From Chamaelirium japonicum (Eukaryota > Streptophyta > Magnoliopsida > Liliales > Melanthiaceae), in NCBI GenBank assembly GCA_947650365.1, contig OX393550.1, positions 97,354,519-97,418,518 of the forward strand: a stretch of 64,000 nt of DNA, read 5' to 3'. Made by a program: the position numbers and the translations under genes. Numbering within the stretch: position 1 is the first letter of the stretch; every line of letters begins with the position of its first letter. The notes beneath the pieces are model-generated. The model saw nothing but the letters and a program-made list of their open reading frames with translations. It had not been told where the DNA came from and did not search any database. Positions 19,678 to 59,954 of the stretch are shown here, piece after piece.

Positions 19678-19682
19678 GGGAT
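19678..19682. repeat. Target-site duplication GGGAT (left)
   Basis: GGGAT here is repeated at 36,714-36,718 immediately after the other end of the Tat element. This 5-bp direct repeat is typical of LTR-retrotransposon integrase. Confidence 0.95.
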
Positions 19683-21900
19683 TGTATGCGCAAAAAAAGG
19701 TACGGGTCGGCTTTATTGCACAAAACGAGATTACAATTGTGGCCGGGACCCGGGTTGCTCGGGTGTAGCGAGTCCGGGTTGCGGCGAGTTTTGATCAGGG
19801 GATTGTGGGAAAGATCTTCTGGGGGATCCCTTTGATCCGCGTCTCCACGTGGTGTTCGTGCGAGAGCGCTGAAGGGGCTGCCCAGGACAGGGGTTTTACA
19901 GGGAGAGGGTTTTGGAGAGGCTAAGGAATGTCCACCGTTGCTTTGTCCCTTCCGTGCTTCGCGCTTTCTCGGCTAGGGGGTTTTCGGCTTCGTTCCTCGG
20001 TCTTCGCGTCTTCCTCGTTCCTTGCTTGACCTCGGTGTCCTTGATCGTCGGTTCGCGGCGTCGATCGAGCTTTTGGCGTTGGCTTTGGCTTTGGCTTTTT
20101 GGCTTTGGCTTGGCTCCGGAGTGGCTCTGGCTTTTGCTTTGCTTCGGCGCTTGCACTTGGACGTAGCTGGGAGAGACTTGCGATGCTTTCGTTCTTCCGG
20201 ACTTCGCGTCGTATCGGCTAGAACGTGCGGTGCTTTTGCTCGTGGCCGGCGTAGTCGCTTGGCTTTGGCTCTTGCTTTGCTTTGGCGCGGGCTTTACTGG
20301 GGCTTTGCTTTGGCTTCTTGCGTTGCTTTAGTTTTGGCGTTTACTCGATCTTCTTCTTCGAACGACGTGGGCTACTTCTCCGGTGCTTCGACGGTTTGCG
20401 TGTCAACGGGACTTCTCTTCTTCTCCGGGCTTCTTTGGCGTGATCGGGGTCGAAGAATGCTTTCGAAGATGGTGGGGGTAGCACCGATCTCCGTGCGACG
20501 GTTGTAGCGTCGGCTTTTGTTGATGAAGACGACGGGGGTGGCGACGCTTCAGATGATCTGCTCCAGGCTTTCTTCTTCGTGGATGGCGCAGGCGTTAGTC
20601 GAAGACGACGGGGTGATGACGCTTCGCTTCTCTCCTCCGGGCTTTGGGGCTTGATCGGGATCGAGGGCTTGTTGGAGACGACGGGGTAGTGCCGCTCCTC
20701 TTCTTCTCCGGGCTTTTGGGCTTGATCGGAGTCGAAGCTTGTTGGAGACGACGGGGTAGTGCCGCTCCTCTTCTTCTCCGGGCTTTTGGGCTTGATCGGA
20801 GTCGAAGCTTGTTGGAGACGACGGGGTAGTGCCGCTCCTCTTCTTCTCCGGGCTTTTGGGCTTGATCGGAGTCGAAGCTTGTTGGAGACGACGGGGTAGT
20901 GCCGCTCCTCTTCTTCTCCGGGCTTTTGGGCTTGATCGGAGTCGAAGCTTGTTGGAGACGACGGGGTAGTGCCGCTCCTCTTCTTCTCCGGCCTTTTCTT
21001 CTGGCGTCCTCGGAGTCGAAGGGTTCTTCTTCTCCGAGCTTTCTTCTTCGTGAACGGAGTCGAAGGGGTGATCGTCGTGCGCAAGGGTCTTCACGTTGAT
21101 GAGGACTTTCAGTAAGCCGATCCCTCGGGACAGGCTTGACTGTGCCTCGTGAAGCCTTGGGTCGATGAAGAAGCGTGCTCTCTTCTGCAGAGCTCTGGCG
21201 CTTCGTCTTCAATTTCTCGACCATTTTTTCCTTCCCCCACCCCCTCTATTTATAGGCAAAGAGGTGGGGAGAGAGATATGGAAACTTTTTAATTTTAAAT
21301 CCCTTTTGTATCTCTCTCATAATTACCCGGATTTTATTCATCCATTGATGAAGGGAATAACATTTAATTGTTTTCCTTTTCTGGCGGGTGCAATTATGGC
21401 TGGATTTTGCGCACGAAATCGATGGCGATCGGGCGCTTCGTCTTGTGCGTCGGATCGAGGGATCGGCGCAGATCCGCGTGTGTGCAGACGTCATACGCTA
21501 CCTCCCCCCGCGCATGGCGGTATTCTTTCCTTTTCTTTCTTTTCTTTCCTTTTCTTTTCTTTCCTTTTCTTTTCTTTCCTTTCTTTTCTTTCCTTTTTCT
21601 TTTCTTTCTTTTTCTCCCCTTTCCTTGCAGGGCCGGCCGGCCCCCCATGGGGTTCGGGTCCTACTAGGGCCGGCCCCATGTGGCTTGGGTCCTAGTAGGG
21701 ACCGGCCCCCATGGGGTTCGGACCCTAGTAGGGGCCGCCCCCCCCCCCCCCTTGGCGCATGGGGTCCGGGTCCGCATCGGCGCGCGCGAGTCGGGTTTGA
21801 ATCCATGTCGGTGCGCGCGAGTTGGGTCCGTGTGTCGGGTTTGCATCCGCGTTGGCACACGTGAGTCGGGTTCGGGTCCGACGAAATTCGTGTGTCTACA
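19683..21900 (-). repeat. Tat 3' LTR (left copy)
   Basis: 2,218 bp with TG/CA ends. On the minus strand it contains a TATA box (21,255-21,246, CTATAAATAG), a pyrimidine tract (21,521-21,620) and five copies of a 70-bp tandem unit (about 20,641-20,995). Confidence 0.95.
20641..20995 (-). repeat. 70-bp tandem repeat in LTR, five copies
   Basis: GTTGGAGACGACGGGGTAGT recurs at 20,671, 20,741, 20,811, 20,881 and 20,951. The right LTR has four copies (35,555; 35,625; 35,695; 35,765). Because 70 is not a multiple of three and the unit has no stop in any minus-strand frame, three long overlapping frames result. One of them (21,224-20,595, 209 aa) starts at an ATG about 30 nt from the TATA box, essentially at the expected transcription start. 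Confidence 0.95.
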
Positions 21901-21913
21901 AATGCCCCCTCAA
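21901..21913 (-). other. Polypurine tract (probable)
   Basis: On the element strand TTGAGGGGGCATT directly abuts the 3' LTR start TGTAGACACG. A G-rich tract at this place is where plus-strand DNA synthesis is primed. Confidence 0.7.
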
Positions 21914-22436
21914 GGACGAGTGCGTCGGTGAGAGCGTGTCGGGTTTGGACACGTAGGAATCGTAGAGCGTTTGTCCTTGATTCCTTTTGTGGGCGGGGTT
22001 GGAGGTCTATTTAAGGACCCCTACCCCCTTCTTCCGTCATTGCGTTTCTCTGCGAAGGTTCCGCCGGCTTCTGAAGATCTGAAGAGAGCTGCCTGGGGTT
22101 GCACGAGACTTGCTCCGTCTTCCCGGTGTCGCCTTTTTCGTCGGCCTTGTGCTTTTGCGCGACGGTTCTGCCGGCTTCTGAAGACCGTAGTCGGAAGAGA
22201 GCTGCCTGGGGTTGCACGCGACTCGCTCCGTCTTCCCGGTGTCGCTTCTTTCGTCGGCGGCGATGGTGCGCGATTTCGCGGTCGTTGCGAAGGCGGGTTC
22301 GAAGCGACGATGCGACGAGGCTCGAGGCGGGGAGGATGGAGGAGCGCGGCTGAGGTGCGGGTCGCCTTCGCCGCCTCTCTCTTCCTCCTCCTTCTTCTTC
22401 TTCTTCTTTTCTTTTTCTTTTTCTTTTCTTTTCTTT

Positions 22437-22467
<31 letters not shown>

Positions 22468-22927
22468 TTCTTCTTTTCTTTTCTTTTTTTTTTTCTTTCT
22501 TCTTCTTCTTCTTCGGTTCGGTTCCGGGCTGCACGGGCAGCAGCGGCAGCAGCACCGGCGCGGGGCGCGGCGGGGCCGGCGGCGCGCGGGGTCGCAGCGT
22601 GCGGTGGCGCGCGGGAGGCGGCGACGGCGCGCGGCGCGCGCGGCGGCCGGCGTGCAGGGTGGCGGGCGCGAGCGGATCGGGCGCGGGGGCCGGCGTGCAG
22701 GGTGGCGGGCGCAAGCGGATCGGGCGCGGGGGCCGGGTCCGGCGGCTGCGGGACCGAGTGGGTCGGGCTCGGGGGCCGGGTCCGGCGGGCGTGGCGGTTT
22801 GGTCGGGCTGCAGGCGAAGAAGAAGGAGAAGGAGGGGGGTGCGGGTCCCCCCCTTTCCTTCTTTGTTGTTGCTCTCCAATTGGAAGGGGGCGAGGGGCCC
22901 GTGGGCCCCCCCACTTGTTGATTTCTC

Positions 22928-22928
<1 letters not shown>
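21914..22928. other. Tat internal region: leader of the antisense gene
   Basis: Holds a duplicated segment of about 125 bp (GGTTCTGCCGGCTTCTGAAG type, about 22,045-22,140 and 22,162-22,255), a CTT/TTTC tract (22,376-22,515) and a GC-rich block (22,540-22,800). Long frames here are low-complexity and are not called as genes. Confidence 0.5.
22007..22045 (+). promoter_or_regulatory. Putative promoter of the antisense gene
   Basis: TCTATTTAAGG at about 22,007-22,017 is followed by a C/T-rich initiator-like region (CCCTTCTTCCGTCATTGCG). It lies about 110 bp inside the LTR border and faces away from the LTR, towards the plus-strand PMD gene. It is inferred from sequence only. Confidence 0.45.
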
Positions 22929-22969
<41 letters not shown>

Positions 22970-23084
22970 AACTTCGAAGGCGCCGATGATACCAGTGTCG
23001 GCTCGTGGCGCACGGGTCACGACACGGGTGTGGGCTGGCTGGAGAGTAATCTTGAATCGGGCAATCCTCTTGACAGGGGTGCAG

Positions 23085-23122
<38 letters not shown>
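22929..23122. repeat. Two poly(T) tracts (T40 and T34)
   Basis: Runs at 22,929-22,968 and 23,089-23,122. A third, T38, is at 26,608-26,645. On the element strand these are poly(A) tracts on both sides of the antisense coding region. Confidence 0.9.
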
Positions 23123-23123
<1 letters not shown>

Positions 23124-23358
23124 TGCGCTTGTCTTGACTTGCCTCCTTTCATGGTCCTCCAGGGCCCGCGTCTTCGAGAGTTTGACTTCCTCGGGCTGGA
23201 TAGATGAGGATTTCTTCGACGGGAGGAGATGCCTTTGCTTTCCTTTCACTCGTGTGCGCCGTCACCGCAGCTCAAGGCGGGAAAACCTTCTGTCGTTGCT
23301 CCGTGTCTTTGTGCACGAGCGCATCACGGAAGATGGAGTCGCGGATGCGACTTGCGGG

Positions 23359-26300
23359 ATGCTGAAATTAAGCGAGAAGATCCATACTGACGAAGGGATC
23401 TCCATGAAGCTTCTGCGGCCGAGTTTGAGTCTTCCGTTCCATCATTGCGGTGAAGAGTTCGTGCCTACGCCAGTTGTTGCCTCGAAGATATGTGCTAGGC
23501 TGACCCGATGGGGCCCCGATTCTTGGCCTCGGGGCGACGTCCAGTACCTTTGCGGCTTTCGCGAGTGGATGGACGAGCTCTACGAGGTCTTTGGCGCGGA
23601 ACCTGAGATGAACTTATTGGCCAAATTTCTGGCGCCGGCTCGTCGGGAGTACAGTCGTCCTGAGGGGATGTACCGTGCGCTTTGTGAGCTTTGGTGTCCG
23701 GAGACTAACACCTTCCTTACTGGGGCGGGGGAGATAGGCATCTCGCTTCGTGATGTCCATATCGTTTCGGGGTGCCCCGAGGTACGGAACTACTACCAAG
23801 AGGAGGTGCCTGCCTTGAAGGATCTGCTGGACAGCAGCTACGCTCCGAGTTCTTGCCTCCTTCTGTTCAAGGCATATGCTATCATTGCGGCGAGGGACCA
23901 ATCAGATCGAGTGCGTCCTTCTTCTTGGGTCGATTTTTGGTTCAGAGGCGAGTATAGAGCTCCAGCGCCCTCAGCTCACCCGATGTGGAAGATCGCTCAG
24001 ATGCAGAGACCTCCGCTTCGCTCCTTTGTGAGGCCTATCGATTCCTTGGCTCGAGAGAAGCACTCAATGGAGGGGAAGCAGTGCCCCTGGGAACTCCTTG
24101 GCCTGAAACGGGACAGCGAGGAGTGGCGATCGGTTTACCGAGCCGCCGGGCTGGTCATCTTTCTTTGCCGGTTCGTGCTTCCGTGTTCTGGGGAGGCCAT
24201 TCGTCCGGGGACCTTCCTTGCTGCTTCCAGGATGGAGAGGGGCGAGCTCTTCAATCTAGCCCCAGCCATACTATGCGCCTTGTATCGGGCTCTCAGCGGG
24301 ACTTACTGGGACTTGTCTGGCTCAGATAAGGCCAAGGAGGAGCTCGGCCGGTCGGCTGCTTTCGGACCCTTGCATTATTTGTACGGCTGGATAGCTCTGC
24401 ATTTCCCGAAGGGGATCTTTGCCAGGCGCGGGCATCCAGCCGAGTTACCTTTCCTCCCAGGGGTAGGAGGGATTTTGAACGCCTTTATCAGTTGGGAGCG
24501 TCCGAAAGAGTGTGCTCGTACCCTTTTGAGGAGGATGGGGAGCGTCGATTTTGAATTTCTGTCGGAGCATTCGGTGCTGCCTTTGGAGAGGTCGACCGTG
24601 TATGACAACGACGGGCTCCCGGATAGTCTTTACTGGAATATGGTCAGCTGCCGCCCTGGCTACTTAGTCTGGCGCAAAGGAGATGTGGTGGAGGTGGAGC
24701 GGTACTCCCCCCATCGCTTTGCCCGTCAGCAGGGTTTTCGACAGGAAGTCCCTGGCACGCCTCAGCAGTTGCAGGGGCGTTTCAGTCCGCAGGAGGGTTA
24801 CCGTCTGTGGGCTTCCCTCTACGCTCGCTTTACTGGCAGTAGTTTCTTCCCTGGGGCCAAATCCGGGCTTCGGGACGCCGCCACCCCGGAATACTGCCAG
24901 TGGGTTAAAGGGCGAGTTTCCCCTTTACTTGCGAGTTTTCCAGTCGACGTCTTGGTGAGTAGCGGGTTCAGGAATTTCTGCTTTGATCATTCTGCGGGAG
25001 TAGAGGACCGCCGCCTCCAACTGGGACTTCGGCGGGCGCAGAGGAGCGGTAGTCGTCTTTCCAGCGCTCGTTGTGTCCCTTCTTCCGTTCCGGTGCTGGA
25101 TGTCGAGCTTACTAGTGCCCCTGGGGTATTCTGTTTCCCGAAGGCCGAAGTTGAGGGTGCCCCTCCCAAGAGAAGAAAAATGTGCATTCCTCGCGGGATG
25201 GTCCCGAGAGTCCCTTGTCTGACGGAGGATGCCGAGGAGCCTGGACTTCTGAAAGATGAAGTGATTCCTCCGTCCCGGACCGCTTCGTCCGACCACACAG
25301 GTATGGAACTCTCTTCATTTTATTTGTCCTCTACGTTCAGGAAGCTTTATCACGCTGAGCACCGTTTCTTTCTTTTGACCAGATTCTGTTATAGTGGTAG
25401 AGCGTGGAGCGAGCTCTTCAAAGGTGCCTCTTGGGCATTCGTCCACCGGTGCCGCACAGGAAGTGCCCGAACCCTGCGGGCTAGATATCCCTCCGGATGA
25501 TCTAGATCTCCTCGGACTTTGCGGGGAGAACTTCCCTAGGGGCGACATTAACCTGGACGACATCGATGTCGACGCCTTGTCTTTTGGCGAGGAGGCTGAA
25601 GTCTCGAGCATCGACAAGCGGCGTTCCCCGATGACTGTGCCCTCGTGTCCTTTGGTGGAGACGGTTGTTGCAGCGGTAGCGGCGGTTTCTCCAGTTCCGC
25701 CACCCTTGTTGGCGCAGGCGGCTCCTGTTGCGGCCGCAGCGGCAGCGGAGGTTTCTCCGGTTCCACCACCCTTGTTGGCGCGGGCGGCTCCTGCGGCAGT
25801 TGCAGCGGCAGGGAGGGTCTTGCCCACTTACTCCGAGGCGCCTCGTCCAGTTTTAAGGCCGAGGAGCAGGGTCTCAGAGTTCCTTCTTTCGAGCTGCCGG
25901 CAGTACATCAAGTCGACGTTGGAGCCTTTCCAAACTGCCGGTCTTGGCGCCCTCCAGGACTGGTGGTCGGCAGATGGTGCGGAGTTTTGCGCGAGCCTGG
26001 CGGAGTTCAAAGTTGACAGCTCTCTTTTCGTCGCTCAAATGGACCAGCTTGTGACCGAGAGCGAGGCTTATCGATCCCGGCGGGCTTTGCTGGAGGGGAG
26101 CTCCCCTTCTGAGCTGGAGGCCGCTGAGGCGAGTCTAAGTCAGTCCGGGCATCAACTTGCGGAGGCTACGTCCAGCCTATCGAAGGCCCAGAGGAAGGTG
26201 GAATCTGCGCGCGCCTCACTTCGGAAGGCGGAGTCCCGTTTGGAGCGGGCTGAGGCTGCGGAGAGCACTTTGAAGGCGAGTCATTTGAGGCAACAGTCGG

Positions 26301-26413
26301 ACTTGGCAACCCGTCGCGAGCTTCTGGTCGCTCGTCCCGTGGAGCTTCAGAGAGTGGAGGCAACTAGGGAGGAGCTGTTGCGTCGTCTTCAAGCTCTGGA
26401 CACCTTCTTTTAG
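23359..26413 (+). CDS. Antisense spliced gene in the Tat element: plant mobile domain plus coiled coil
   Basis: Exon 1 (23,359-25,300) has the first in-frame ATG; the frame stays open upstream from 23,134. Exon 2 (25,383-26,413) follows an 82-bp intron with GTATGG donor and TTTTGACCAG acceptor. The join keeps phase and gives about 990 aa. Residues ~28-420 look like the plant mobile domain (aminotransferase-like, transposon type): WCPETNTF at ~112, then GEIGISLRDVHIVSGCP and FLCRFVLPCSGEAIRP at ~270. A basic PKRRK (~603) could be a nuclear signal. Exon 2 encodes an acidic stretch, a duplicated SPVPPPLLA Ala/Pro segment and a ~130-residue Glu/Ala/Arg coiled coil to the stop. The function in the element is unknown. 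Extra antisense ORFs are known in Tat relatives such as Grande. Confidence 0.75.
25301..25382 (+). other. Predicted 82-bp intron of the antisense gene
   Basis: The donor CACAG|GTATGG and the acceptor TTTCTTTTGACCAG|ATTCTG define a GT-AG intron with a pyrimidine-rich 3' end. Removing it joins the 788-codon upstream frame to the 339-codon downstream frame, which otherwise overlap out of register. Confidence 0.7.
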
Positions 26414-26605
26414 TTATTCCTTGTTCCATTGTGGCTTCCTTTTCGGGACTTATGCAGTGTACTGTCTTTGCTTTATTAATAATATCGCCTCATTTTGCCA
26501 CACCCTTTCCATGGAACTTTGTTGTCTTTTTGGTCGGACTGAACCTGAAGTAACTTCTCAGGCTGCCTACGTACCCCCCTAAGGGGGATCAAGTCGCACG
26601 TAGTT

Positions 26606-26646
<41 letters not shown>

Positions 26647-26667
26647 GACAAGGAGTATGGCCTTGCT
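26414..26667. terminator. Convergent 3' region between the antisense gene and gag-pol
   Basis: On the plus strand TTTATTAATAATATCG (about 26,472) could serve as a poly(A) signal for the antisense gene. The T38 tract at 26,608-26,645 begins 22 nt past the gag-pol stop on the opposite strand. The two transcription units converge here with only about 250 bp between stops. Confidence 0.45.
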
Positions 26668-29600
26668 TTAGGCATAGTACCTTTTGAGGTACTTGCCGTT
26701 GATAGGGCCGAGTGTCAGCCCTTCTGGCGTGGCGAGGAGATAAGCACCGTTGGAGTAGACTTCCTTGACGGAATGCGGGCCATCCCATTTGGCATCAAAT
26801 TTCTTCCCTCCTCGATGCGAGAGAATGATGGGGCGTTTGACCGCCAGCACCAGTTCCCCTATCTGGAATGATCGAGGACGAATCTTCTTGTTGAAGGCGC
26901 GAGAGAGCCTGGCCTGATAACACTCCAGACGCTGTTGAGCTTCGAGGCGTCTTTCATCCAGTGCTTCCAATTCTGCTAGGCGGAGCTGGGCGTTGTCATC
27001 GCTGGTGAGGCCTTCCTGGACTGCTATCCTGAGTGACGGGATCTGGAGTTCGAGCGGAAGAACGGCTTCCACGCCATAGACGAGGGAATACGGCGTTGCT
27101 TGTGTCGGCGTGCGGAAGGATGTTCGGTAAGCCCATAGTGCTTCGCCCATGCGTTCGTGCCAATCTTTCTTTGTCTTCGAGACGGTTTTCTCCAGCAGCT
27201 TGCACAGAGTTTTGTTGAAGGCTTCTGCTAGACCGTTGGCTGGAGCGTTGTACATTGTCGAACAATTCTGCTTAATGTTGTACAATGCGCAGAACTGGCT
27301 GACGGCAGCATTCTTGAACTGCTTCCCGTTATCTGTTACGATGTAGCGGGGGACTCCATAGCGGAAGATGATGTCGTTCTGGATAAAGCTGATGACGGAG
27401 TACTTTGTAACTTCCCTCAACGGTATCGCTTCAGCCCACTTGGAGAAGTAGTCCGTTGCCGCCAAGATGTAGAGATGTTGCTTGGATGATTTGGGCAGAG
27501 GACCGACGATGTCAAGACCCCATCCGTCGAAGGGCCAAGACGCGATTGTTGGGTGTAAAGGCTCCGGAGGTTGACGAATGTAGTCCCCGTGCATTTGGCA
27601 AGCTTGACATCTTCTCGCGTACTCCAAGCTGTCTTTGATCATGGTAGGCCAGTAGTATCCCATCCTTCTGACGCGGAAGTGAAGCTTCGGACCGGACTGG
27701 TGTGATCCACAGATTCCAGCGTGTACTTCTTCGAGCGCGGCTTCCGCTTCCTCTTTTGCGAGGCACCTCAGGAGTGTGCCGTCATAGCTTCGTCGGTACA
27801 GTTCGCCGTTGAAGTGGTAAAACCTTAGAGATCGTCGACGGATGTCACTTTTGCGCTTCGGATCTTCGGGGAGTTTACCATGAACAAGGTACTCCACCAA
27901 CGGTTGCCTCCAGTCTTGTTCTTTAATCTCGAGGACATGCACCGCGTTGGTTTGAACTGGTACCTCGGGCGGACCCTCTTTTTCGATGACCACGAATCTC
28001 CTGCAGACGGGGATGACGAGTGAACGCTCATCTGGGAACGGGAGTGTAGCCGCCAGATTTGCGAGTGCGTCAGCCTGCTGGTTGAGGTTTCTGGAAACGT
28101 GTTGGATGGAAACAGCCTTGAGTTTTTCGAGGAGCTTTACGGCTCGCGCATGCAACGGTACCAGGTCTTCTTTATTGACTTCGTATGCCCCCAGGACTTG
28201 CTGGATCACGAGTTGAGAGTCGCCAAAGATCTCTAGTCCTTGAAGGTTCATTTCGTCGGCCAGTTCGAGACCAATGAGTAGGGCTTGATATTCTGCCACG
28301 TTGTTGGAACATGCTTCCGAGAGCAGGAATGAGAAGGGGAGTATTTCGTTGTCCGGAGTGACAAAGATGACTCCGGCTCTTGCTATGTCCTGCCTAGCTG
28401 CGCCGTCGAAGAACATTTTCCAAGGCGGGGCGATGTCGACGGAGAACACTTCTTCATCTGGGAGATCTTCCGATAACTCCCATTCTGCCGGGAGAGGGTA
28501 TTCTGCGAGGAAGTCCGCGAGGGCCTGCCCTTTAACCGCTTTCTGTGGCACGAAGGTGATGTCGAATTCAAGTAGCAACAGGGCCCACTTGGCTAGACGT
28601 CCGGAAAGGACTGGTCTCGACATGATGTATTTGAGTGGGTCAGCCTTCGAGACGAGTCTGATGGTGTGAGCGAGCATGTAGTGTCGCAGCTTCTTCGTGG
28701 CGAAGATGAGCGCTAAGCAGACCTTCTCGATTGGGGAGTAATTCAGCTCTGCGCCGATGAGAGTGCGACTTAAGTAGTAGCAAGCTGTCTCCACGCCAAG
28801 TTCATTGTTCTGGGCTAGGAGTGCCCCCAAGGACTGCTCTTGGGCGGCGATGTAGAGGATGAGCGGCCTCCCTTGAACCGGTGCTGATAGGACTGGCGGC
28901 TTCAGTAGATATGCTTTGATGTTTTGGAGTGCTTCTTGGCACGCTTCATCCCATGTGAACGGCGCTCCTTTCTTCATGAGGCGGCTAAAAGGGTGGCACT
29001 TTCCAGCCAAGTTGGCGATGAATCTTCGGATATACGCCAAGTGCCCTTGGAGGCCTCTGAGGTCTCGCACTGTATTTGGTGCGGGCATATTGACGATAGC
29101 ATCAATTTTGGATTGATCTATCTCAATGCCACGATGTCGGACGACGAAGCCGAGGAATTTGCCCGAGGAGACTCCGAACGCGCACTTGAGCGGATTCATG
29201 CGGAGTTGGTACCTTCGAAGTCGTTTGAAGATTAGCTCAAGATCTTGTAGATGTGCCGACCTCTTCTTAGATTTCACCACGAGGTCGTCGACATAACACT
29301 CCACGTTTTGATGAAGAATGTCGTCGAAGATTTTCTGCATAGCTCGCTGGTAGGTGGCTCCCGCGTTCTTCAAGCCGAACGGCATTACCTTATAGCAGTA
29401 GATTCCTTTTGGTGTGCGGAACGTCGTGAGCTCCTCATCCTTGGGTGCCATCCGAATCTGATTGTAGCCCGATGATCCGTCCATGAAAGTGAGCACCTCG
29501 TGACCTGTCGTCGCATCGACCATTAGTTCCGTGATTGGCAAGGGGAAGTCATCCTTTGGACATGCGTTGTTCAAATCTCTGAAGTCCACGCACACTCGGA

Positions 29601-32600
29601 TTTGGCCGTTCTTCTTTTTGACGGGGACGACGCTAGAGATCCATGTCGGGTACTTGACCTCTCGAATGAAGCCGGCTTCGATCAATTTGTTGACTTCGCC
29701 TTCTATTTGGGGTATCAGTTCTGGCCGGTAGCGTCTTTGTCCTTGCTTGATAGTGCTGGCTCCGTGTTTGACGCTGAGCTGGTGCACTGCGATTTTTGGA
29801 TCGAGGCCCGGCATCTCCTTGTAGGACCATGCGAAGACGTCTCTGTATTCTTTAAGCAGTTTGATGTATGCAGCTTCTTCCTCCGGGGTTAAGAGCGTGC
29901 TGACGAATGTAGGCCGAGGCTCCGTCTCCGTGCCCAAGTTGATTTCCTTCAAGTCATCAACGGTGGACTGCCCCCCTTCTTCGAGGACTGGCGGGGCGTC
30001 GGGCAACTCGTCGTCCGACGTAGAAGTTTCACCGTTGTCGGGGCCCGTAATGGAGATATGATGGACGGCAGCCATGGGTGGGTGGGTGGGTGTTGAGACG
30101 AAGTCCTCGATAGGCATTTCCAGGCGATCGAACACTGACTTCTTCTTTGAATGTTTGACTGGCCCGAGCCTCTCGAACACGGATGTGCGTTTTCGATTCG
30201 ACCAGTCTTTACCACCTCTGGTTTGCTTCCGGAACAAGGCTTGGCATCGAGCCCGTCGTCGTCTTCTCCTGCTGTCTGGATGGCTGAGGTAGGTGGAGAG
30301 TGCATCGGAGACTGTCGATCCTTCAGCTGCTTCATCTACCATCCTCGCCTCGACGTAGTTCGAGGTGAAGGTCTTCTTTGCTGTGGTTCTGATGACCAAT
30401 GGAGCTTGACTGGAGCCGATGCCTCGGCGGTTCGGGGGAATTTGCTCTCCGTTTTGAAATAGCCGAGCTTGAGTTCTTGTCATCCCATGCGGAGTTGCTG
30501 CTGGTGGGAGTGTGCCCATGGCGCTTTCCTCGTTATAGCCAGCTCTAAACAGCAATTTGGCAGCATTTTGCCCCCAACTCCCTTCCGGTTTGAATCCGAG
30601 TGGCTCGAGGTCTGCCGATTCGACGGGTCTGCTTGGGTTCGGAGCTTCTGCCAGACTAGGTAGTGGCACCGTCATTTCTTGCAGAGTGATGACATTGGCC
30701 TGAGATAACGTTGGGGCCAGCTTCCTTGTCGGAGTAGAAGGCGATCGCTCGGATTTGCGGAGCCACTGAGGCGCGAGACGCAAGATAGGCGCCGTTTGGA
30801 TTGGCAACGGGGTATGTTGCATTGCTCTTGGCTCGAAGCTGATGCGCATCCTTTGTCCAGGTTTCGGCGTTCCTTGGACCTTGGGTCTCGCCTCGTCCGA
30901 AGATGGCACTGGATTCCCGGGAAGAGGAGTCTTTTCCTTATTTACTTCTTCAATCTTTTGAGCTCGAGGGGTTTTAGCCGGCAGAACTTCCGCGACCAGG
31001 CCCTTTGCTTGGTAGAATTTAGCGTCGGCCAGGTGTGCCTCGGCCTCGTTGAATGGCTTGTCGTCCGCAACTATGCACCTCTCCACGCCTTCTTCGTAGT
31101 ACTTGAGGCATTGATGCCAGGTGGATACTATGATGCCGTTCTCGTGCAGCCATGGTCTTCCTAGCAGGAGACGATATGATGTCCGACAGTCGATGATGTG
31201 GAAGAGGACCGTCGTATCTAGTGGGCCGATGGAAAGCTTCAGACGAATGATTCCAACGGTGGACTGTCCGCCTTGGTTGAAGCCTTGAATGACCAACTGA
31301 CTTGGTGAGAGCTGGTCGTCGGTAATGCCGAGTTGCCGCATCGTCTGGATGGGCATGATGTTGACAGCGGAGCCACAGTCCAATAAGATTCGGTTCACTG
31401 GCTTCTCCTTGATGTATCCCGAAACGTAAAGAGGCCGGTTGTGCAATCGCGTCCCGAGTTGCAGGTCCTCGTCTGAAAAGGTTATCGTTGCATCACACGA
31501 GGCTACAGCTTTGCCCTTCTGGTCATCCTTCCTTTTTCTCTTGTAGCTATCTGGATCGGCCAAGGCCGCCGCCATTGCCAGGCGAGCCTTCTTCGGAAGA
31601 TGCAAAGCCTCTACGAGCGGCATGTGCAAGATTGCTTCGTCGTGAGCGGCGGTGCCCCCATCGTTGGAGTCGTCCCCCTCATCGGTGGAGTCGCCTTCTT
31701 CAGAAGTTTCGCCTTCGTTCTTTCTTTCCGACACTTCATGGACTTCGACCATGCAACAAGACACCTTGACGTGTTGGTCCACCGGGAGGAAGTGATCCGG
31801 GAAGAACTCTTGCAAAGTTGTCGGCTCTGGAAGACTCTGCTGAAGGATATCGTCTCGGCTCGCTGGCGGTACTTTGAACGCCTTCCTTCCTGGAGTCTTG
31901 CTTTTCTTCTTGTAGGTCTTTCGCTTGGTGAATCCCCTCATCACACGGTCTTGCTTGAGCTTCTTTTCTTGCCAAGGCTTTCGCCGCCGCGGTAGCATGA
32001 CCCATGCTTCTTCGTCGGTGGATTCCCCTTCGCTAGGATGATGGTCGTCAGCAGCAACTGGCTTCTTTGATGACACTTGTTCTTCCGGAGGCTCTACTTG
32101 CTCATCTTCCGATCCCCAGCCGGTGGGCTTGATTTCTTCGATTGGAACGGATGGAGGCCTTGAGTGGAGGACGTAATAGTCAAACTTCCCTGATGGCTGG
32201 CCCAGCAGACCGACTTCGGGGTCTCCCTGCTCGTATCTTTCTCTAAGAGCGCGTTGGGACATAGCTTGGCTGGAAGGGACTTGCTCTTCTCGAGGTTCCA
32301 CTGGCTCTTCTCCCGATCCCCAGCCGGTGGGCTTGATTTCTTCGATTGGAACGGATGAAGGCCTTGAGTAGAGGACGTAATAGTCAAACTTCCCTGACGG
32401 CTGGCCCAGCAGGCCGACTTCTGGGTCTCCTTGCTCGTATCTCCTTTGGAGCGTTCGTTGGGATGCAGTATTGCCTGGAAAAGGTGCTGGCGTGAGCGAT
32501 GATTGCCCCCAGGGCAGCGGTGTTTCCTCTTCGGTGAGCGCAGGAGTACGTTGACGTCGCTTCGAAACTTTCGGCTGAGAAGTTGACTTAGCGATTGGAG

Positions 32601-34494
32601 CTTGACGGTTGATGCGCAATTTGGGCATGCTTCGCCTAGCAGCAACAAGCACCGGCGAAAAGGAGCCGAAGGTGATGGACGTCATGTTGGCCGTAGCAAC
32701 TTCTCCAGAGTCGATCTCTATCTTCCCTTGTTTAGCGAGCGCCATGATTCTTTCCTTGAAGACGAAGCATCTTTCGATGGGATGACTCACCACCCGGTGG
32801 TATTTGCAGAAGAGAGGGTCGTCGACACGATGCATCTGCTCGGGCCTCTTTGAAGGAGGGAGCTCTATCATCTTCTCTTGCAGCAGCTGGTCGAACATGG
32901 AGGAGACTTCCGAGTCTGGGAAAGGGTACTCCTTGGCTTCGAGCTCCTCGAGAGTCATCCTTTGTCTTAGCGGCGGAGGCGGTGGTATGGCGACTCCCTT
33001 CTTCTGATCTGGCTTGCCACCGATCTTGAGCGGCTTGGAGGTTGAAGCGACGTCAGCAACATTGACTTGTTTCAGTTTCGTTGCCGGTGGCTTGTCCTTC
33101 TTCTCTATCTTCAAGAAGTCCTTGTTCTTCAAGTCCCCGCGGTTTGCTAGGCTGAGTTCCATGTCATGAGCCCGAGTTGCGAGTTCTTCGAAAGACCGAG
33201 GCTTGATACCTTTGAGGATGTAGAGCAGACCCCAGTGCATGCCTTGGGTGCACATCTCGATGGCCGAGTCTTCAGACAAGCGGTCTCGTGAATTCAGCGC
33301 GAGGTTCCTCCACCTGTCGATGTAGTCGATCACTGGCTCATCTTTCCTTTGCTTGACGGCGGTGAGTTCGGTCATACTGACTGTACGTCTGGTGCTGTAG
33401 AAGCGATTGAGGAACTCCCTTTCCATCTGGTCCCAGCTGTCGATGGTCCCTGCAGGAAGATCAACGTACCAGTCGAACGCGTTGCCTTTGAGGGTGCGAA
33501 CGAATTGCTTCACCATCTCGTCGCCATATGTGCCGGCATTATTGCAGGTCTCGATGAAGTGGGCGACGTGCTGTCTCGGGTTTCCCTTTCCATCGAAGTG
33601 CTGAAACTTTGGCGGCTGGAATCCGACTGGGAAGCGTAGCTGCTGGATCCTCGTAGTGTAGGGCTTCGAGTATGCCGCCGTGATCGGAGGAAGGCTACTG
33701 CCGTGGGAGCGCATCATGTCGGCTATCAACGCTTGGACTTGCTGAGCACTCATCGCAGCCGCTGTTGCCGGAGGTTGAGTGGCCACCGAGGCTGGCGTAG
33801 GGGAGACGACTTCCACTGGGACGGGAGCCGAGGAGAGCGCTGGAGTAACTGCTTGAATCGTCGGAGCGACTTCTGCAGGAGCGGGAGTTGAAGACGGAAC
33901 TGGAGCGGCTACCGGAGAAGCGACGGGTTGGCTAACTGCTGTAGCGTCCTTTGCGCTTAGCTTCTGGAGCAGAGCGTTGATGTGACGATCCTTCTCCTCC
34001 ATTAGCCGAGTAATCTGCGCCATGTGCTCGTTCATCTGCATGACTTGGAGCTGAAGAGCGGTCGGAGGGTGGTGACGGAGAACGCCTCGGTGTTGCATGT
34101 TCGCATCCTCGCCGTCATCATCTGAGACGTAGTTACGCCGACTTGCTTCTAGCTGATGATTGATGTTTGCCCCCTGCAGAGGAGGTGCAACGTCTGCTGG
34201 AGAACCCGAACTGGTTCGGGGTTGGGGCTGGTCCTCCCCAAACTTCTGGACATGGGCTCCAGGATCGAGGCTCGTTTCTTCATGCACCAGGGCCTCGTCG
34301 GTGCTTTGGCGAGCATCTTCGGTAGTAGCTTCTGGCACGAAGATGTCCGCAAGAGTCCGTGTACGCCGAGTGTAGACGCGCACCATTGGAGGAGCATCAC
34401 CCTCCGGATTTACTGGATCACCGTGGCGGAGTAGAGGAGACTCGGCGATTGGTGAGAGGCTTGGAGCAAACGCATCGTTGTTCGTTCCGGTCAT
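26668..34494 (-). CDS. Tat gag-pol polyprotein, 2,608 aa, intact
   Basis: One frame from ATG at 34,494. The order is: gag (~295-460; FDGKGNPRQHVAHF), a CHHC knuckle-like CKYHRVVSHPIERC (C563), a tandem 68-aa duplication (~675-810), aspartic protease (LLDCGSAVNIMP, D1039; Cys at the usual Ser/Thr site), RT (~1590-1770; YVDD 1734-1737), a degenerate gypsy RNase H (~1850-1975), a second, archaeal-type RNase H (FFDGAARQ, D2030; DALANLAA), an integrase H2C2 finger (~2250-2300) and an integrase core with D2328, D2388, E2424 (D59D35E spacing). There is no chromodomain. Dual RNase H is the hallmark of the Tat lineage. No stops or frameshifts were seen, so it may be active. It encodes the functions for the reverse-transcription and integration cycle. 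Confidence 0.95.
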   Translation of the reverse strand: MTGTNNDAFAPSLSPIAESPLLRHGDPVNPEGDAPPMVRVYTRRTRTLADIFVPEATTEDARQSTDEALVHEETSLDPGAHVQKFGEDQPQPRTSSGSPADVAPPLQGANINHQLEASRRNYVSDDDGEDANMQHRGVLRHHPPTALQLQVMQMNEHMAQITRLMEEKDRHINALLQKLSAKDATAVSQPVASPVAAPVPSSTPAPAEVAPTIQAVTPALSSAPVPVEVVSPTPASVATQPPATAAAMSAQQVQALIADMMRSHGSSLPPITAAYSKPYTTRIQQLRFPVGFQPPKFQHFDGKGNPRQHVAHFIETCNNAGTYGDEMVKQFVRTLKGNAFDWYVDLPAGTIDSWDQMEREFLNRFYSTRRTVSMTELTAVKQRKDEPVIDYIDRWRNLALNSRDRLSEDSAIEMCTQGMHWGLLYILKGIKPRSFEELATRAHDMELSLANRGDLKNKDFLKIEKKDKPPATKLKQVNVADVASTSKPLKIGGKPDQKKGVAIPPPPPLRQRMTLEELEAKEYPFPDSEVSSMFDQLLQEKMIELPPSKRPEQMHRVDDPLFCKYHRVVSHPIERCFVFKERIMALAKQGKIEIDSGEVATANMTSITFGSFSPVLVAARRSMPKLRINRQAPIAKSTSQPKVSKRRQRTPALTEEETPLPWGQSSLTPAPFPGNTASQRTLQRRYEQGDPEVGLLGQPSGKFDYYVLYSRPSSVPIEEIKPTGWGSGEEPVEPREEQVPSSQAMSQRALRERYEQGDPEVGLLGQPSGKFDYYVLHSRPPSVPIEEIKPTGWGSEDEQVEPPEEQVSSKKPVAADDHHPSEGESTDEEAWVMLPRRRKPWQEKKLKQDRVMRGFTKRKTYKKKSKTPGRKAFKVPPASRDDILQQSLPEPTTLQEFFPDHFLPVDQHVKVSCCMVEVHEVSERKNEGETSEEGDSTDEGDDSNDGGTAAHDEAILHMPLVEALHLPKKARLAMAAALADPDSYKRKRKDDQKGKAVASCDATITFSDEDLQLGTRLHNRPLYVSGYIKEKPVNRILLDCGSAVNIMPIQTMRQLGITDDQLSPSQLVIQGFNQGGQSTVGIIRLKLSIGPLDTTVLFHIIDCRTSYRLLLGRPWLHENGIIVSTWHQCLKYYEEGVERCIVADDKPFNEAEAHLADAKFYQAKGLVAEVLPAKTPRAQKIEEVNKEKTPLPGNPVPSSDEARPKVQGTPKPGQRMRISFEPRAMQHTPLPIQTAPILRLAPQWLRKSERSPSTPTRKLAPTLSQANVITLQEMTVPLPSLAEAPNPSRPVESADLEPLGFKPEGSWGQNAAKLLFRAGYNEESAMGTLPPAATPHGMTRTQARLFQNGEQIPPNRRGIGSSQAPLVIRTTAKKTFTSNYVEARMVDEAAEGSTVSDALSTYLSHPDSRRRRRRARCQALFRKQTRGGKDWSNRKRTSVFERLGPVKHSKKKSVFDRLEMPIEDFVSTPTHPPMAAVHHISITGPDNGETSTSDDELPDAPPVLEEGGQSTVDDLKEINLGTETEPRPTFVSTLLTPEEEAAYIKLLKEYRDVFAWSYKEMPGLDPKIAVHQLSVKHGASTIKQGQRRYRPELIPQIEGEVNKLIEAGFIREVKYPTWISSVVPVKKKNGQIRVCVDFRDLNNACPKDDFPLPITELMVDATTGHEVLTFMDGSSGYNQIRMAPKDEELTTFRTPKGIYCYKVMPFGLKNAGATYQRAMQKIFDDILHQNVECYVDDLVVKSKKRSAHLQDLELIFKRLRRYQLRMNPLKCAFGVSSGKFLGFVVRHRGIEIDQSKIDAIVNMPAPNTVRDLRGLQGHLAYIRRFIANLAGKCHPFSRLMKKGAPFTWDEACQEALQNIKAYLLKPPVLSAPVQGRPLILYIAAQEQSLGALLAQNNELGVETACYYLSRTLIGAELNYSPIEKVCLALIFATKKLRHYMLAHTIRLVSKADPLKYIMSRPVLSGRLAKWALLLLEFDITFVPQKAVKGQALADFLAEYPLPAEWELSEDLPDEEVFSVDIAPPWKMFFDGAARQDIARAGVIFVTPDNEILPFSFLLSEACSNNVAEYQALLIGLELADEMNLQGLEIFGDSQLVIQQVLGAYEVNKEDLVPLHARAVKLLEKLKAVSIQHVSRNLNQQADALANLAATLPFPDERSLVIPVCRRFVVIEKEGPPEVPVQTNAVHVLEIKEQDWRQPLVEYLVHGKLPEDPKRKSDIRRRSLRFYHFNGELYRRSYDGTLLRCLAKEEAEAALEEVHAGICGSHQSGPKLHFRVRRMGYYWPTMIKDSLEYARRCQACQMHGDYIRQPPEPLHPTIASWPFDGWGLDIVGPLPKSSKQHLYILAATDYFSKWAEAIPLREVTKYSVISFIQNDIIFRYGVPRYIVTDNGKQFKNAAVSQFCALYNIKQNCSTMYNAPANGLAEAFNKTLCKLLEKTVSKTKKDWHERMGEALWAYRTSFRTPTQATPYSLVYGVEAVLPLELQIPSLRIAVQEGLTSDDNAQLRLAELEALDERRLEAQQRLECYQARLSRAFNKKIRPRSFQIGELVLAVKRPIILSHRGGKKFDAKWDGPHSVKEVYSNGAYLLATPEGLTLGPINGKYLKRYYA
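32065..32475 (-). repeat. 204-bp in-frame tandem duplication in gag-pol
   Basis: Two successive copies encode RYEQGDPEVGLLGQPSGKFD followed by a YYVL...PTGWGS segment, 204 bp (68 codons) apart, with a few replacements between them. It lies in the linker between the gag knuckle and the protease. Confidence 0.9.
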
Positions 34495-34542
34495 TGCAAA
34501 CTTCAAGCAGCTTCTTCAACCGTACGGATGAAAGGAGAAGAG

Positions 34543-34560
34543 GTCCCCCTGGGCGTGCCA
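34543..34560 (-). other. Primer-binding site (probable)
   Basis: On the element strand TGGCACGCCCAGGGGGAC begins six bases after the 5' LTR end. The TGG start pairs with the CCA 3' end of a tRNA. I cannot name the tRNA with confidence. Confidence 0.75.
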
Positions 34561-34566
34561 GAAATC

Positions 34567-36713
34567 TGTATGCGCAAAAAAAGGTACGGGTCGGCTTTAT
34601 TGCACAAAACGAGATTACAATTGTGGCCGGGACCCGGGTTGCTCGGGTGTAGCGAGTCCGGGTTGCGGCGAGTTTTGATCAGGGGATTGTGGGAAAGATC
34701 TTCTGGGGGATCCCTTTGATCCGCGTCTCCACGTGGTGTTCGTGCGAGAGCGCTGAAGGGGCTGCCCAGGACAGGGGTTTTACAGGGAGAGGGTTTTGGA
34801 GAGGCTAAGGAATGTCCACCGTTGCTTTGTCCCTTCCGTGCTTCGCGCTTTCTCGGCTAGGGGGTTTTCGGCTTCGTTCCTCGGTCTTCGCGTCTTCCTC
34901 GTTCCTTGCTTGACCTCGGTGTCCTTGATCGTCGGTTCGCGGCATCGATCGAGCTTTTGGCGTTGGCTTTGGCTTTGGCTTTTTGGCTTTGGCTTGGCTC
35001 CGGAGTGGCTCTGGCTTTTGCTTTGCTTCGGCGCTTGCACTTGGACGTAGCTGGGAGAGACTTGCGATGCTTTCGTTCTTCCGGACTTCGCGTCGTATCG
35101 GCTAGAACGTGCGGTGCTTTTGCTCGTGGCCGGCGTAGTCGCTTGGCTTTGGCTCTTGCTTTGCTTTGGCGCGGGCTTTACTGGGGCTTTGCTTTGGCTT
35201 CTTGCGTTGCTTTAGCTTTGGCGTTTACTCGATCTTCTTCTTCGAACGACGTGGGCTACTTCTCCGGTGCTTCGACGGTTTGCGTGTCAACGGGACTTCT
35301 CTTCTTCTCCGGGCTTCTTTGGCGTGATCGGGGTCGAAGAATGCTTTCGAAGATGGTGGGGGTAGCACCGATCTCCGTGCGACGGTTGTAGCGTCGGCTT
35401 TTGTTGATGAAGACGACGGGGGTGGCGACGCTTCAGATGATCTGCTCCAGGCTTTCTTCTTCGTGGATGGCGCAGGCGTTAGTCGAAGACGACGGGGTGA
35501 TGACGCTTCGCTTCTCTCCTCCGGGCTTTGGGGCTTGATCGGGATCGAGGGCTTGTTGGAGACGACGGGGTAGTGCCGCTCCTCTTCTTCTCCGGGCTTT
35601 TGGGCTTGATCGGAGTCGAAGCTTGTTGGAGACGACGGGGTAGTGCCGCTCCTCTTCTTCTCCGGGCTTTTGGGCTTGATCGGAGTCGAAGCTTGTTGGA
35701 GACGACGGGGTAGTGCCGCTCCTCTTCTTCTCCGGGCTTTTGGGCTTGATCGGAGTCGAAGCTTGTTGGAGACGACGGGGTAGTGCCGCTCCTCTTCTTC
35801 TCCGGCCTTTGCTTCTGGCGTCCTCGGAGTCGAAGGGTTCTTCTTCTCCGAGCTTTCTTCTTCGTGAACGGAGTCGAAGGGGTGATCGTCGTGCGCAAGG
35901 GTCTTCACGTTGATGAGGACTTTCAGTAAGCCGATCCCTCGGGACAGGCTTGACTGTGCCTCGTGAAGCCTTGGGTCGATGAAGAAGCGTGCTCTCTTCT
36001 GCAGAGCTCTGGCGCTTCGTCTTCAATTTCTCGACCATTTTTTCCTTCCCCCACCCCCTCTATTTATAGGCAAAGAGGTGGGGAGAGAGATATGGAAACT
36101 TTTTAATTTTAAATCCCTTTTGTATCTCTCTCATAATTACCCGGATTTTATTCATCCATTGATGAAGGGAATAACATTTAATTGTTTTCCTTTTCTGGCG
36201 GGTGCAATTATGGCTGGATTTTGCGCACGAAATCGATGGCGATCGGGCGCTTCGTCTTGTGCGTCGGATCGAGGGATCGGCGCAGATCCGCGTGTGTGCA
36301 GACGTCATACGCTACCTCCCCCCGCGCATGGCGGTATTCTTTCCTTTTCTTTCTTTTCTTTCCTTTTCTTTTCTTTCCTTTTCTTTTCTTTCCTTTCTTT
36401 TCTTTCCTTTTTCTTTTCTTTCTTTTTCTCCCCTTTCCTTGCAGGGCCGGCCGGCCCCCCATGGGGTTCGGGTCCTACTAGGGCCGGCCCCATGTGGCTT
36501 GGGTCCTAGTAGGGACCGGCCCCCATGGGGTTCGGACCCTAGTAGGGGCCGCCCCCCCCCCCCCTTGGCGCATGGGGTCCGGGTCCGCATCGGCGCGCGC
36601 GAGTCGGGTTTGAATCCATGTCGGTGCACGCGAGTTGGGTCCGTGTGTCGGGTTTGCATCCGCGTTGGCACACGTGAGTCGGGTTCGGGTCCGACGAAAT
36701 TCGTGTGTCTACA
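34567..36713 (-). repeat. Tat 5' LTR (right copy)
   Basis: 2,147 bp, nearly identical to 19,683-21,900 but with four rather than five 70-bp units. On the minus strand the TATA box CTATAAATAG is at 36,069-36,060. This is the promoter that would transcribe gag-pol. Confidence 0.95.
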
Positions 36714-36718
36714 GGGAT
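36714..36718. repeat. Target-site duplication GGGAT (right)
   Basis: Matches 19,678-19,682 exactly. Confidence 0.95.
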
Positions 36719-46891: not shown

Positions 46892-47631
46892 ACCTTACAT
46901 TCAAAAAAAATTATAAAGAAAGAAAACATAGACGAAATTTATGATTTCGTCTAATTTTCGTCCAACTTTCGTCTCACAGCTCAATGCCAGTCTCGGGCAA
47001 GACTGACTGTGATTTTTCGGCAACGAAACATAGCCGAAATTTGTTATTTCGTCCAATTTTCGTCCAACTTTCGTCACACAGCTCAATGCAAGTCTCGGAC
47101 AGAACTGACTATGATTTTTCGGCGACAAAAACTAGATGAAATTTGTTATTTTGTTCGATTTTCGTCATACAGGCCATAGCCAGTCTCAGCCAGAACTGAC
47201 TGTGATTTTTCGGCGACGAAAACTAGACGAAATTTGTTATTTCATCCGATTTTCGTCAAACAGACCATAGCCAGTCTCTGCCAGAACTGACTGTGATTTT
47301 TCGGTGACAAAAACTAGACGAAATTTGTTATTTCGTCCGATTTTCGTCAAATAGACCATAGCCAGTCTCTGCCAGAACTGACTGTGATTTTTCGGCGACG
47401 AAAACTAGACGAAATTTGTTATTTCGTCCGATTTTCGTCATACAGCCCATAGCCAGTCTTGGCCAGAACTGACTGTGATTTTTCGGCGATGCAAACTAGA
47501 CGAAATTTGTTATTTCGTCTGATTTTCGTCTCACAGCCCAAAGCCAGTCCCGGGCAGAAATGACTGTGATTTTTTTTGCGATGAAAACTGAACGAAACTT
47601 GTTATTTCGTCGGATTTTTTGAATGTAAGGT
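46892..47631. mobile_element. 91-bp tandem array bounded by a 17-bp inverted repeat
   Basis: ACCTTACATTCAAAAAA at 46,892-46,908 is perfectly inverted at 47,615-47,631. Between them about seven units recur with 91-bp spacing (GACTGTGATTTTTCGG at 47,198, 47,289, 47,380, 47,471, 47,562; the first two intervals are 102 and 91 bp). Each unit contains the dyad GACGAAAT-TTGTT-ATTTCGTC. GACGAAA/TTTCGTC motifs of this kind are common in the subterminal regions of plant CACTA elements. Confidence 0.7.
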
Positions 47632-47639
47632 TTAGAAAC

Positions 47640-48109
47640 ACTATATTTCTTTACTTTAAAACACTATACCTTACCAAATTCGAAAAAATATCATATCACA
47701 ATGTCGGATAATTAAAAAAACTAAATTATATGAAAATATAGGGCTAAGATTTGGGTCTATAGAGCATACCTTGGCAAGGCAAGCTAAATCCGACGAAGCC
47801 TGAACGATGAAGCCTCGGCGACGAAGCCTCAACGACGAAGCCTCAGCAACTGTTGAAGTTGACGCCGGTCCGACGAACCTCGACGACGGTTGATCGTGAC
47901 GAACCCTCGACGACAAACCCTCGACGAAAAGCGGGATTTTGGAAGCCGGTTGAGTTGGAGGTGGTCAGACGCAGCCTCGATGAAGGTTGTTCGTGACGAA
48001 AACAAGGCGAAAGGCTCGATTTCTCTCAAACTGGTAAGAAACCAAGTTACCCAGCCACGATAGGTTTTTACAGTGGTAAGGGTCAATATGTCTTTTTACC
48101 TGTTTAGTG
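47640..48109 (-). other. Probable 5' part of the DUF1985 transposon
   Basis: The minus strand reads Arg/Ser-rich frames from GACGAAGCCTC-like short repeats (47,790-48,000). At 48,105-48,109 the plus strand has TAGTG, that is CACTA on the minus strand, a possible element terminus. No partner end is available because the other side is cut by the copia element, so the boundary is tentative. Confidence 0.3.
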
Positions 48110-59940: not shown

Positions 59941-59954
59941 ACTATCAACTATAC

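What the first reader, a model, noticed from the sequence alone, without database searches (positions are those of the whole stretch)
22007..26480. A complete-looking spliced gene on the antisense strand of a young Tat retrotransposon
Seen: a TATA-like TCTATTTAAGG about 110 bp inside the LTR, a pyrimidine-rich start region, a 648-codon plant-mobile-domain exon, an 82-bp GT-AG intron that joins two out-of-register frames in phase, a coiled-coil exon and a possible poly(A) signal. Known: Tat-lineage elements carry antisense extra ORFs, and plant mobile domains occur in host MAIN/MAIL proteins and in transposons. Inference: this element carries an independently transcribed, spliced gene convergent with gag-pol. 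In a virtually unmutated element both frames are intact, which suggests selection. The fused PMD, basic motif and coiled coil might act on chromatin or silencing.
Basis: partly seen in the sequence, partly recalled or inferred. Interest (0 to 1): 0.78.

Follow-up and report, generated by a model that had tools for sequence, protein, structure and literature searches.

The report
Spliced antisense gene in a retrotransposon
A very abundant plant retrotransposon carries, on its opposite strand, what looks like a three-exon protein gene that selection has kept intact; accessory genes of this kind are known, but the introns and the measured selection are unusual, and whether the gene is expressed is still untested.

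Summary
In 12 further genomic copies the four splice dinucleotides are unchanged, while intron 1 varies from 121 to 814 bp and five copies share a 1-bp deletion in intron 2. In the 11 copies compared for gaps, the only coding indels are three of 63 or 66 bp. Substitutions are constrained in the proposed frame (exon 3 omega 0.32 without one truncated copy, against about 1.1 in the shifted + frames). Two eudicot homologues share the domain order. Antisense accessory genes with their own promoter, and plant mobile domains in gypsy elements, are published. My six searches of open papers listed no spliced one, but two key papers were not held. Most likely it encodes a nuclear accessory protein that regulates the element or counters host silencing; that part is inference. 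No RNA data were available.

The parts
19683..36713 (-). Whole Ty3/gypsy element, flanked on both sides by GGGAT (+ strand; 19678-19682 and 36714-36718) as target-site duplication
   Evidence: LTR alignment; ends and flanks read
19683..21900 (-). 3' LTR of the element
   Evidence: 4 mismatches in 2,218 aligned columns with the other LTR, plus a repeat-length gap; TG...CA ends
21901..21915 (-). Polypurine tract next to the 3' LTR
   Evidence: Read directly
22006..22016 (+). TATA-like box, candidate internal promoter of the antisense gene
   Evidence: Identical in 7 of 7 copies that cover it; 1.0% of random stretches hold such a site
22263..22354 (+). Exon 1, proposed first coding exon (30 codons + 2 bases), ATG at 22263
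   Evidence: 0-1 differences in 92 positions (90 in L031) against each of 12 copies; first ATG after 22040; ATG in 12 of 12 copies that cover it
22355..23162 (+). Intron 1 (GT-AG, 808 bp here)
   Evidence: 121-814 bp across 13 copies, interior replaced between subfamilies, ends kept
23163..25300 (+). Exon 2 with the plant mobile domain (PF10536) and a PPKRRK basic motif
   Evidence: Pfam E=7.7e-20; homologues at 26-34% identity; selection
25301..25382 (+). Intron 2 (GT-AG, 82 bp; 81 bp in five copies)
   Evidence: Splice dinucleotides in 13 of 13 copies; shared 1-bp deletion in five copies; G+C 0.415 against 0.57-0.67 in the exons
25383..26413 (+). Exon 3: acidic and Ala/Pro linker, WW-containing helical module, long coiled coil, stop TAG
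   Evidence: Matches C-termini of P0002 and P0004; helix model; selection
26478..26483 (+). Weak poly(A)-like signal AATAAT
   Evidence: Read directly
26668..34506 (-). gag-pol, one open frame
   Evidence: gag, RT, RNase H, second RNase H-like domain, integrase in pieces
34542..34560 (-). Primer-binding-like site TGGCACGCC...
   Evidence: Read directly; identification by position only
34567..36713 (-). 5' LTR of the element

Best explanation
This is an antisense accessory gene of a Tat-type Ty3/gypsy retrotransposon: a TATA-like box between the 3' LTR and the gene, three coding exons and two spliceosomal introns, encoding a 1,086-residue protein (plant mobile domain, basic motif, acidic and Ala/Pro linker, WW-containing helical module, long coiled coil). 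Shown by sequence: the anatomy, the conservation of the splice sites, and purifying selection on the frame. From general knowledge: because the gene is antisense, its introns are not in spliceable orientation in the genomic RNA, so retrotransposition does not remove them. Inferred: the protein is nuclear, multimerises through the coiled coil and acts in trans on the element or on host silencing.
For: Plant mobile domain at 71.8 bits. Splice dinucleotides of both introns identical in 13 of 13 copies. Intron 1 of 121-814 bp with exon 1 at 0-1 differences. Gaps against the window in 11 copies: 3 in exons (63 or 66 bp), 5 in intron 2 (one shared 1-bp deletion), 82 in intron 1 (my count). Allele-count omega: exon 2 0.17; exon 3 0.50 with all copies, 0.32 without L041, 0.27 for alleles in at least two copies; shifted + frames 0.99-2.59. 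[quoted passage not shown] Grande's antisense protein is nuclear and has its own promoter (review passages).
Against: No RNA evidence of transcription or splicing. The exon-2 omega is biased low, since copies were ranked by exon-2 protein score. The upstream coding part alone is inconclusive (3 synonymous, 6 nonsynonymous, p=0.4), and its similarity to homologue N-termini is weak (271, 18, 14 and 12 of 2,000 shuffles reach the score). The mirrored minus-strand frame also shows low omega (0.26 and 0.39), though with 18 and 8 stops. The DOWN motif linked to MAIN/MAIL1 is absent from the element. No direct evidence for the silencing role.
Confidence: 0.7

Rival explanations
1. Same gene, but translation starts at ATG 23359; 22263-23358 is 5' leader or promoter, with intron 1 (if real) in the untranslated region.
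For: The N-terminal extension has weak similarity to homologues and inconclusive selection.
Against: Six of the nine upstream ATGs (22986 to 23345) and the first three lie before 23359 in an unspliced leader; exon 1 and its ATG are conserved; the frame upstream of 23359 stays open (from 23074) and has no indel in the 11 copies compared; phases of exon 1 and exon 2 agree.
Confidence: 0.17
2. The antisense RNA itself, not the protein, is what matters: it pairs with genomic RNA and feeds or tunes small-RNA silencing.
For: The genomic RNA includes this region, so the antisense RNA is complementary to it; the 2020 review raises this possibility (passages); plant-mobile-domain genes of tea produce phased siRNAs (passages of PMC10673657).
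Against: Frame-specific constraint and in-frame coding indels show that the protein is selected; an RNA-only role would not spare codon position 3 from constraint.
Confidence: 0.08
3. The protein serves the element only as a structural or integration cofactor (for instance carrying the integration complex into the nucleus), with no link to silencing.
For: Basic motifs and long coiled coil; a nuclear-import role for such proteins is suggested in the 2020 review (passages).
Against: Nothing here excludes it; host plant-mobile-domain proteins are known for silencing and gene regulation.
Confidence: 0.3
4. Chance open frames with no gene.
For: Exon 3 alone (344 codons) is at the edge of what random sequence gave (maximum 349 in 1,000 draws).
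Against: Pfam match, homologues, frame-specific selection and splice-site conservation.
Confidence: 0.01

Closest known systems
Antisense additional ORFs between pol and 3' LTR: maize Grande gene23, rice RIRE2, Silene Retand ORF4, bean PvRetro13
   Same: Position, antisense orientation, convergence with gag-pol; for Grande an own promoter upstream of the gene and a nuclear protein (passages of PMC7264820).
   Different: Two introns and three coding exons proposed here; a plant mobile domain. The review passages that I saw mention no intron in those genes; the Grande 2013 paper itself was not held.
Retand-lineage elements with PF04195 (TRP28) antisense ORFs
   Same: Long pol-3'LTR region with antisense coding; C-terminal Smc-type coiled-coil annotations in some (PMC11963269, parts 1-3 of 5).
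   Different: No PF04195 match here; plant mobile domain instead; that paper's main text has no mention of 'PMD' or 'intron' (word search). LTRs here are 2.1-2.2 kb against 315-1,194 bp there.
PMD-A1/A2 plant mobile domains of gypsy retrotransposons
   Same: Plant mobile domain encoded by a gypsy element (passages of PMC5418596; PMC9289625).
   Different: Clade not tested by a tree here; the passages give no orientation, exon structure or C-terminal module.
Host MAIN/MAIL1 plant-mobile-domain proteins
   Same: Share the PF10536 domain.
   Different: Those are host genes that act in silencing with PP7L (passages); this is element-borne, with an added WW/coiled-coil module, and lies far from the host-type domain L001 (weak phmmer match, E=4e-7).
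HTLV-1 HBZ
   Same: Antisense retroelement gene with spliced and unspliced forms that differ at the N-terminus; nuclear; acts on LTR transcription (passages of PMC10186651).
   Different: Promoter of antisense retroviral genes lies in the 3' LTR, here the candidate lies internal to it; no sequence relation known. Analogy of anatomy only.

Membership tests
Tat lineage of Ty3/gypsy LTR retrotransposons | Second (dual) RNase H domain between RNase H and integrase | tested here: met
   RT_RNaseH, then RVT_3, then integrase in order; feature as stated in PMC9289625 passages
Tat lineage of Ty3/gypsy LTR retrotransposons | RT phylogeny within Tat, and sub-lineage | not tested
   No reference RT set was in hand
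Antisense additional ORF between pol and 3' LTR (Grande gene23 kind) | Coding region antisense to gag-pol, between pol and 3' LTR | tested here: met
Antisense additional ORF between pol and 3' LTR (Grande gene23 kind) | Own promoter active upstream of the gene | not testable with these tools
   A conserved TATA-like box is present; activity needs RNA data
Antisense additional ORF between pol and 3' LTR (Grande gene23 kind) | Nuclear protein | not testable with these tools
   Candidate basic motifs only
Retand-type TRP28 accessory gene | PF04195 domain | tested here: not met
   Not reported at E<=0.1 in either exon
Plant mobile domain family (PF10536) | Score above the curated cut-off | tested here: met
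   71.8 bits against 34.9
PMD-A clade | Placement in the PMD-A1/A2 clades of the domain tree | not tested
   Only element association was shown; no tree built
HBZ-like antisense retroviral gene | Promoter in the 3' LTR | tested here: inconclusive
   The candidate TATA-like box lies 108 bp outside the LTR, but no 5' end is known
HBZ-like antisense retroviral gene | Spliced antisense mRNA | not testable with these tools
   Splice dinucleotides kept in 13 of 13 copies, but no RNA data; analogy only

The most novel reading that the evidence does not exclude
Tat-type elements carry an HBZ-like, spliced antisense regulator whose plant mobile domain engages or mimics the host MAIN/MAIL-PP7L machinery to blunt silencing in trans. 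The antisense orientation is what lets a retroelement keep spliceosomal introns through every round of reverse transcription, so that the accessory mRNA looks like a spliced host mRNA to RNA surveillance.
Probability: 0.2. Interest if true: 0.82.

Novelty: new variant of a known kind. Interest (0 to 1): 0.52.

Why it matters
What the antisense genes of plant Tat elements do is an open question, and the survey I read counted them as single open frames. A three-exon model with measured selection gives exact junctions to look for, a full-length protein to test, and a link between a highly amplified retrotransposon and the domain that host silencing proteins use. It also suggests a reason why such genes are antisense: only there can introns survive retrotransposition.

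Tried and rejected
PF04195: no match. AlphaFold of the plant-mobile-domain exon: mean pLDDT 33.9, unusable; no fold search was made with either model. Profile against the PDB: one chance-level hit, E=0.92. Database search for relatives of the C-terminal part: none at E<=10 among 7,995 scored candidates; the directed comparison with known homologues worked. Profile search for more homologues returned the same six proteins. IMG/VR: 35 pattern hits, none confirmed as a relative. MAIN/MAIL1 DOWN motif CATGCAGTTT with up to one mismatch: 3 matches in the window, 3.86 expected, none in the element. Bacterial promoter/terminator scan: nothing found, and not informative for a plant. Twenty plant-mobile-domain stretches chosen from the 126 matches were fetched; against them and the eight loci the full protein gave at best weak matches (lowest E 4e-7, to L001), so they are distant relatives, not copies. 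Never answered: whole-genome DNA search with the gene, searches for spliced-junction sequences (processed copies), PF04195 in the genome, and the search with P0001.
Full report
ELEMENT. Two LTRs, 19683-21900 and 34567-36713, differ by 4 mismatches in 2,218 aligned columns, plus a repeat-unit length difference. They begin TG and end CA and are flanked by the same 5 bases (GGGAT on the + strand). A polypurine tract lies next to the left LTR and a primer-binding-like site next to the right one, so the element runs on the minus strand. Its gag-pol is one open frame, 26668-34506. Searched in four pieces it shows gag, reverse transcriptase, RNase H, a second RNase H-like domain and integrase, with protease matches below the cut-off. 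The double RNase H is the Tat feature named in PMC9289625 (passages).

The TATA-like box, the 647-codon frame from 23359, the 82-bp GT-AG intron and the second frame are all present. The first frame holds a plant mobile domain at 71.8 bits against a cut-off of 34.9. The TATA-like box is 108 bp on the internal side of the LTR. PF04195 was not reported at E<=0.1.

A THIRD EXON. The frame of the plant-mobile-domain exon is open upstream to 23074, while nine ATGs lie between 22040 and 23358. The best-scoring donor in 22030-23100 is at 22355, by a donor matrix that I wrote from recall. It follows the first ATG (22263) by 92 bases and is in phase with a pyrimidine-rich acceptor at 23161-23162. This gives exon 1 (22263-22354), intron 1 (808 bp), exon 2 (23163-25300), intron 2 (82 bp) and exon 3 (25383-26413): 1,086 residues.

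OTHER COPIES. I fetched 12 copies from the 15 lowest-scoring of those 68 rows and aligned them with the window gene. They form two main groups by intron 1. Seven copies (L030, L032, L033, L034, L037, L039, L040) differ from the window in the intron-1 interior at 136-168 of 501-594 aligned positions, with many gaps, yet show 0-1 differences in 92 in exon 1, 1 in 38 at the end of intron 1, and 13-18 in 2,138 in exon 2. The intron interior differs far more than synonymous sites do, so it has probably been replaced or turns over as repeats; its alignment should not be read as simple divergence. One copy (L038) has only 121 bp of intron 1, with both ends intact. The splice dinucleotides of both introns are identical in 13 of 13 copies. 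The 22263 ATG is present in 12 of 12 copies that cover it; L031 was cut by my fetch. The joined frame is open to its normal stop in 10 of 13. L030 has one internal stop. L031 has no stop in exons 2 and 3 in the proposed frame. L041 departs from the others near 26321, where other sequence begins. In the 11 copies left after setting L041 aside, gaps against the window number 3 in exons (-66, -66 and -63, all in the Ala/Pro repeat of exon 3), 5 in intron 2 (one shared 1-bp deletion) and 82 in intron 1. The counts are mine from the list; many are shared by descent or lie in simple repeats.

SELECTION. Alleles counted over the 13 copies: exon 2, 34 synonymous and 19 nonsynonymous (omega 0.17, p=5e-10); exon 3, 60 and 87 (0.50, p=5e-5), or 43 and 40 without L041 (0.32, p=4e-7). 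Alleles present in at least two copies: exon 2, 15 and 1; exon 3, 32 and 25 (0.27, p=1e-6). With all copies the shifted + frames give 1.35 and 2.22 in exon 2 and 1.46 and 0.99 in exon 3; without L041, 1.31 and 2.59, and 1.14 and 1.11. The p values treat alleles as independent, which shared descent makes optimistic. On the minus strand the mirrored-phase frame also looks constrained (0.26 and 0.39), as overlap of third positions would produce, but it holds 18 and 8 stops. Pairwise Nei-Gojobori dN/dS for the whole frame is 0.21 (window-L033) and 0.13 (window-L034), and 0.45 for the close pair window-L031. Exon-2 values are biased downward, because copies were ranked by exon-2 protein score; exon 3 was not used for ranking. 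The upstream coding part alone (exon 1 to 23358) is inconclusive: 3 synonymous, 6 nonsynonymous, p=0.4.

PROTEIN. Six homologous proteins, all from eudicots by their source names, were found at 26-34% identity (7,997 candidates scored). P0002 and P0004 also carry a C-terminal module like exon 3 (E=3e-7 and 4e-7 in a six-protein set; 0 of 500 shuffles reach the score for the WW segment), P0005 more weakly (E=0.005). So the two main exons correspond to one protein in other plants, which supports the join. A search of the large protein database with the C-terminal part found nothing. The model of exon 3 shows a helical region and one 101-residue helix at pLDDT about 90; the first 164 residues are unstructured and pTM is 0.26. 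The model of the plant-mobile-domain exon failed. SKRR in exon 1 and PPKRRK in exon 2 are candidate nuclear signals (positions; the reading is recalled).

MECHANISM. The introns are antisense to the genomic RNA, so their GT-AG signals are not in spliceable orientation there and pass through reverse transcription; this follows from general knowledge and explains how a retroelement can keep them. The most likely role is a nuclear, multimeric accessory protein. Two readings are open. One is regulation of the element itself, as HBZ does from the antisense strand of HTLV-1 (passages of PMC10186651). The other is interference with host silencing: MAIN and MAIL1 act with PP7L in silencing and gene expression (passages of PMC7156037) and support MORC1 expression (passages of PMC9899485), and PMC5418596 speculates about anti-silencing use of plant mobile domains captured by MULE elements (passages). 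My one direct test, the DOWN motif, was negative.

WHAT IS KNOWN. [quoted passage not shown] Retand elements carry PF04195 antisense ORFs in 97% of clusters (PMC11963269, parts 1-3 of 5). Plant mobile domains in gypsy elements are described in PMC5418596 and PMC9289625 (passages). My six library searches listed no paper whose title or abstract describes introns in such a gene. Papers under subscription are mostly not in the library, and the Grande 2013 and Steinbauerova 2011 papers were not held, so an earlier description cannot be excluded.

VERDICT. A real, selected and apparently spliced antisense gene; a new variant of a known kind; function inferred.

Noticed in passing
22052-22258: The presumed 5' leader of the antisense gene holds two diverged tandem copies of a ~100-bp unit (22052-22145 and 22159-22258), seen; possibly regulatory.
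   Followed up: partly
22400-22510, 22930-22970, 23090-23122, 26610-26646: Long T-rich tracts on the + strand (A-rich in the genomic RNA), of variable length between copies; three sets lie in intron 1 and one between the ends of the two convergent genes.
   Followed up: partly
L032, exon 3: By intron 1 this copy belongs with the second subfamily, but its exon 3 differs from the window at 18 of 1,031 positions against 42-49 in the other six of that group, as recombination between subfamilies would give.
   Followed up: no
L038, intron 1: Intron 1 reduced to 121 bp by one large deletion that leaves both splice sites; intron 2 and exon 3 also differ from both main groups.
   Followed up: partly
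20597-21106 and 35481-35920: 70-bp tandem repeats within the LTRs, one unit more in the 3' LTR than in the 5' LTR.
   Followed up: no
53714-54817: Separate gag-like frame on the + strand (Retrotrans_gag E=2.2e-9), probably another gypsy element.
   Followed up: no
46967-47665, 59268-60927, 61326-62149: Tandem arrays with units of 91 bp, of 107 and 67 bp, and of 236 bp.
   Followed up: no
L001 (G000:C4:7684603-7688691): A full-length plant mobile domain (profile 1-347, E=2.7e-97) in a 693-residue open frame, the likely host-gene type; one search scored 117 of 3,270 candidates and listed 126 matches, most of them degenerate.
   Followed up: partly
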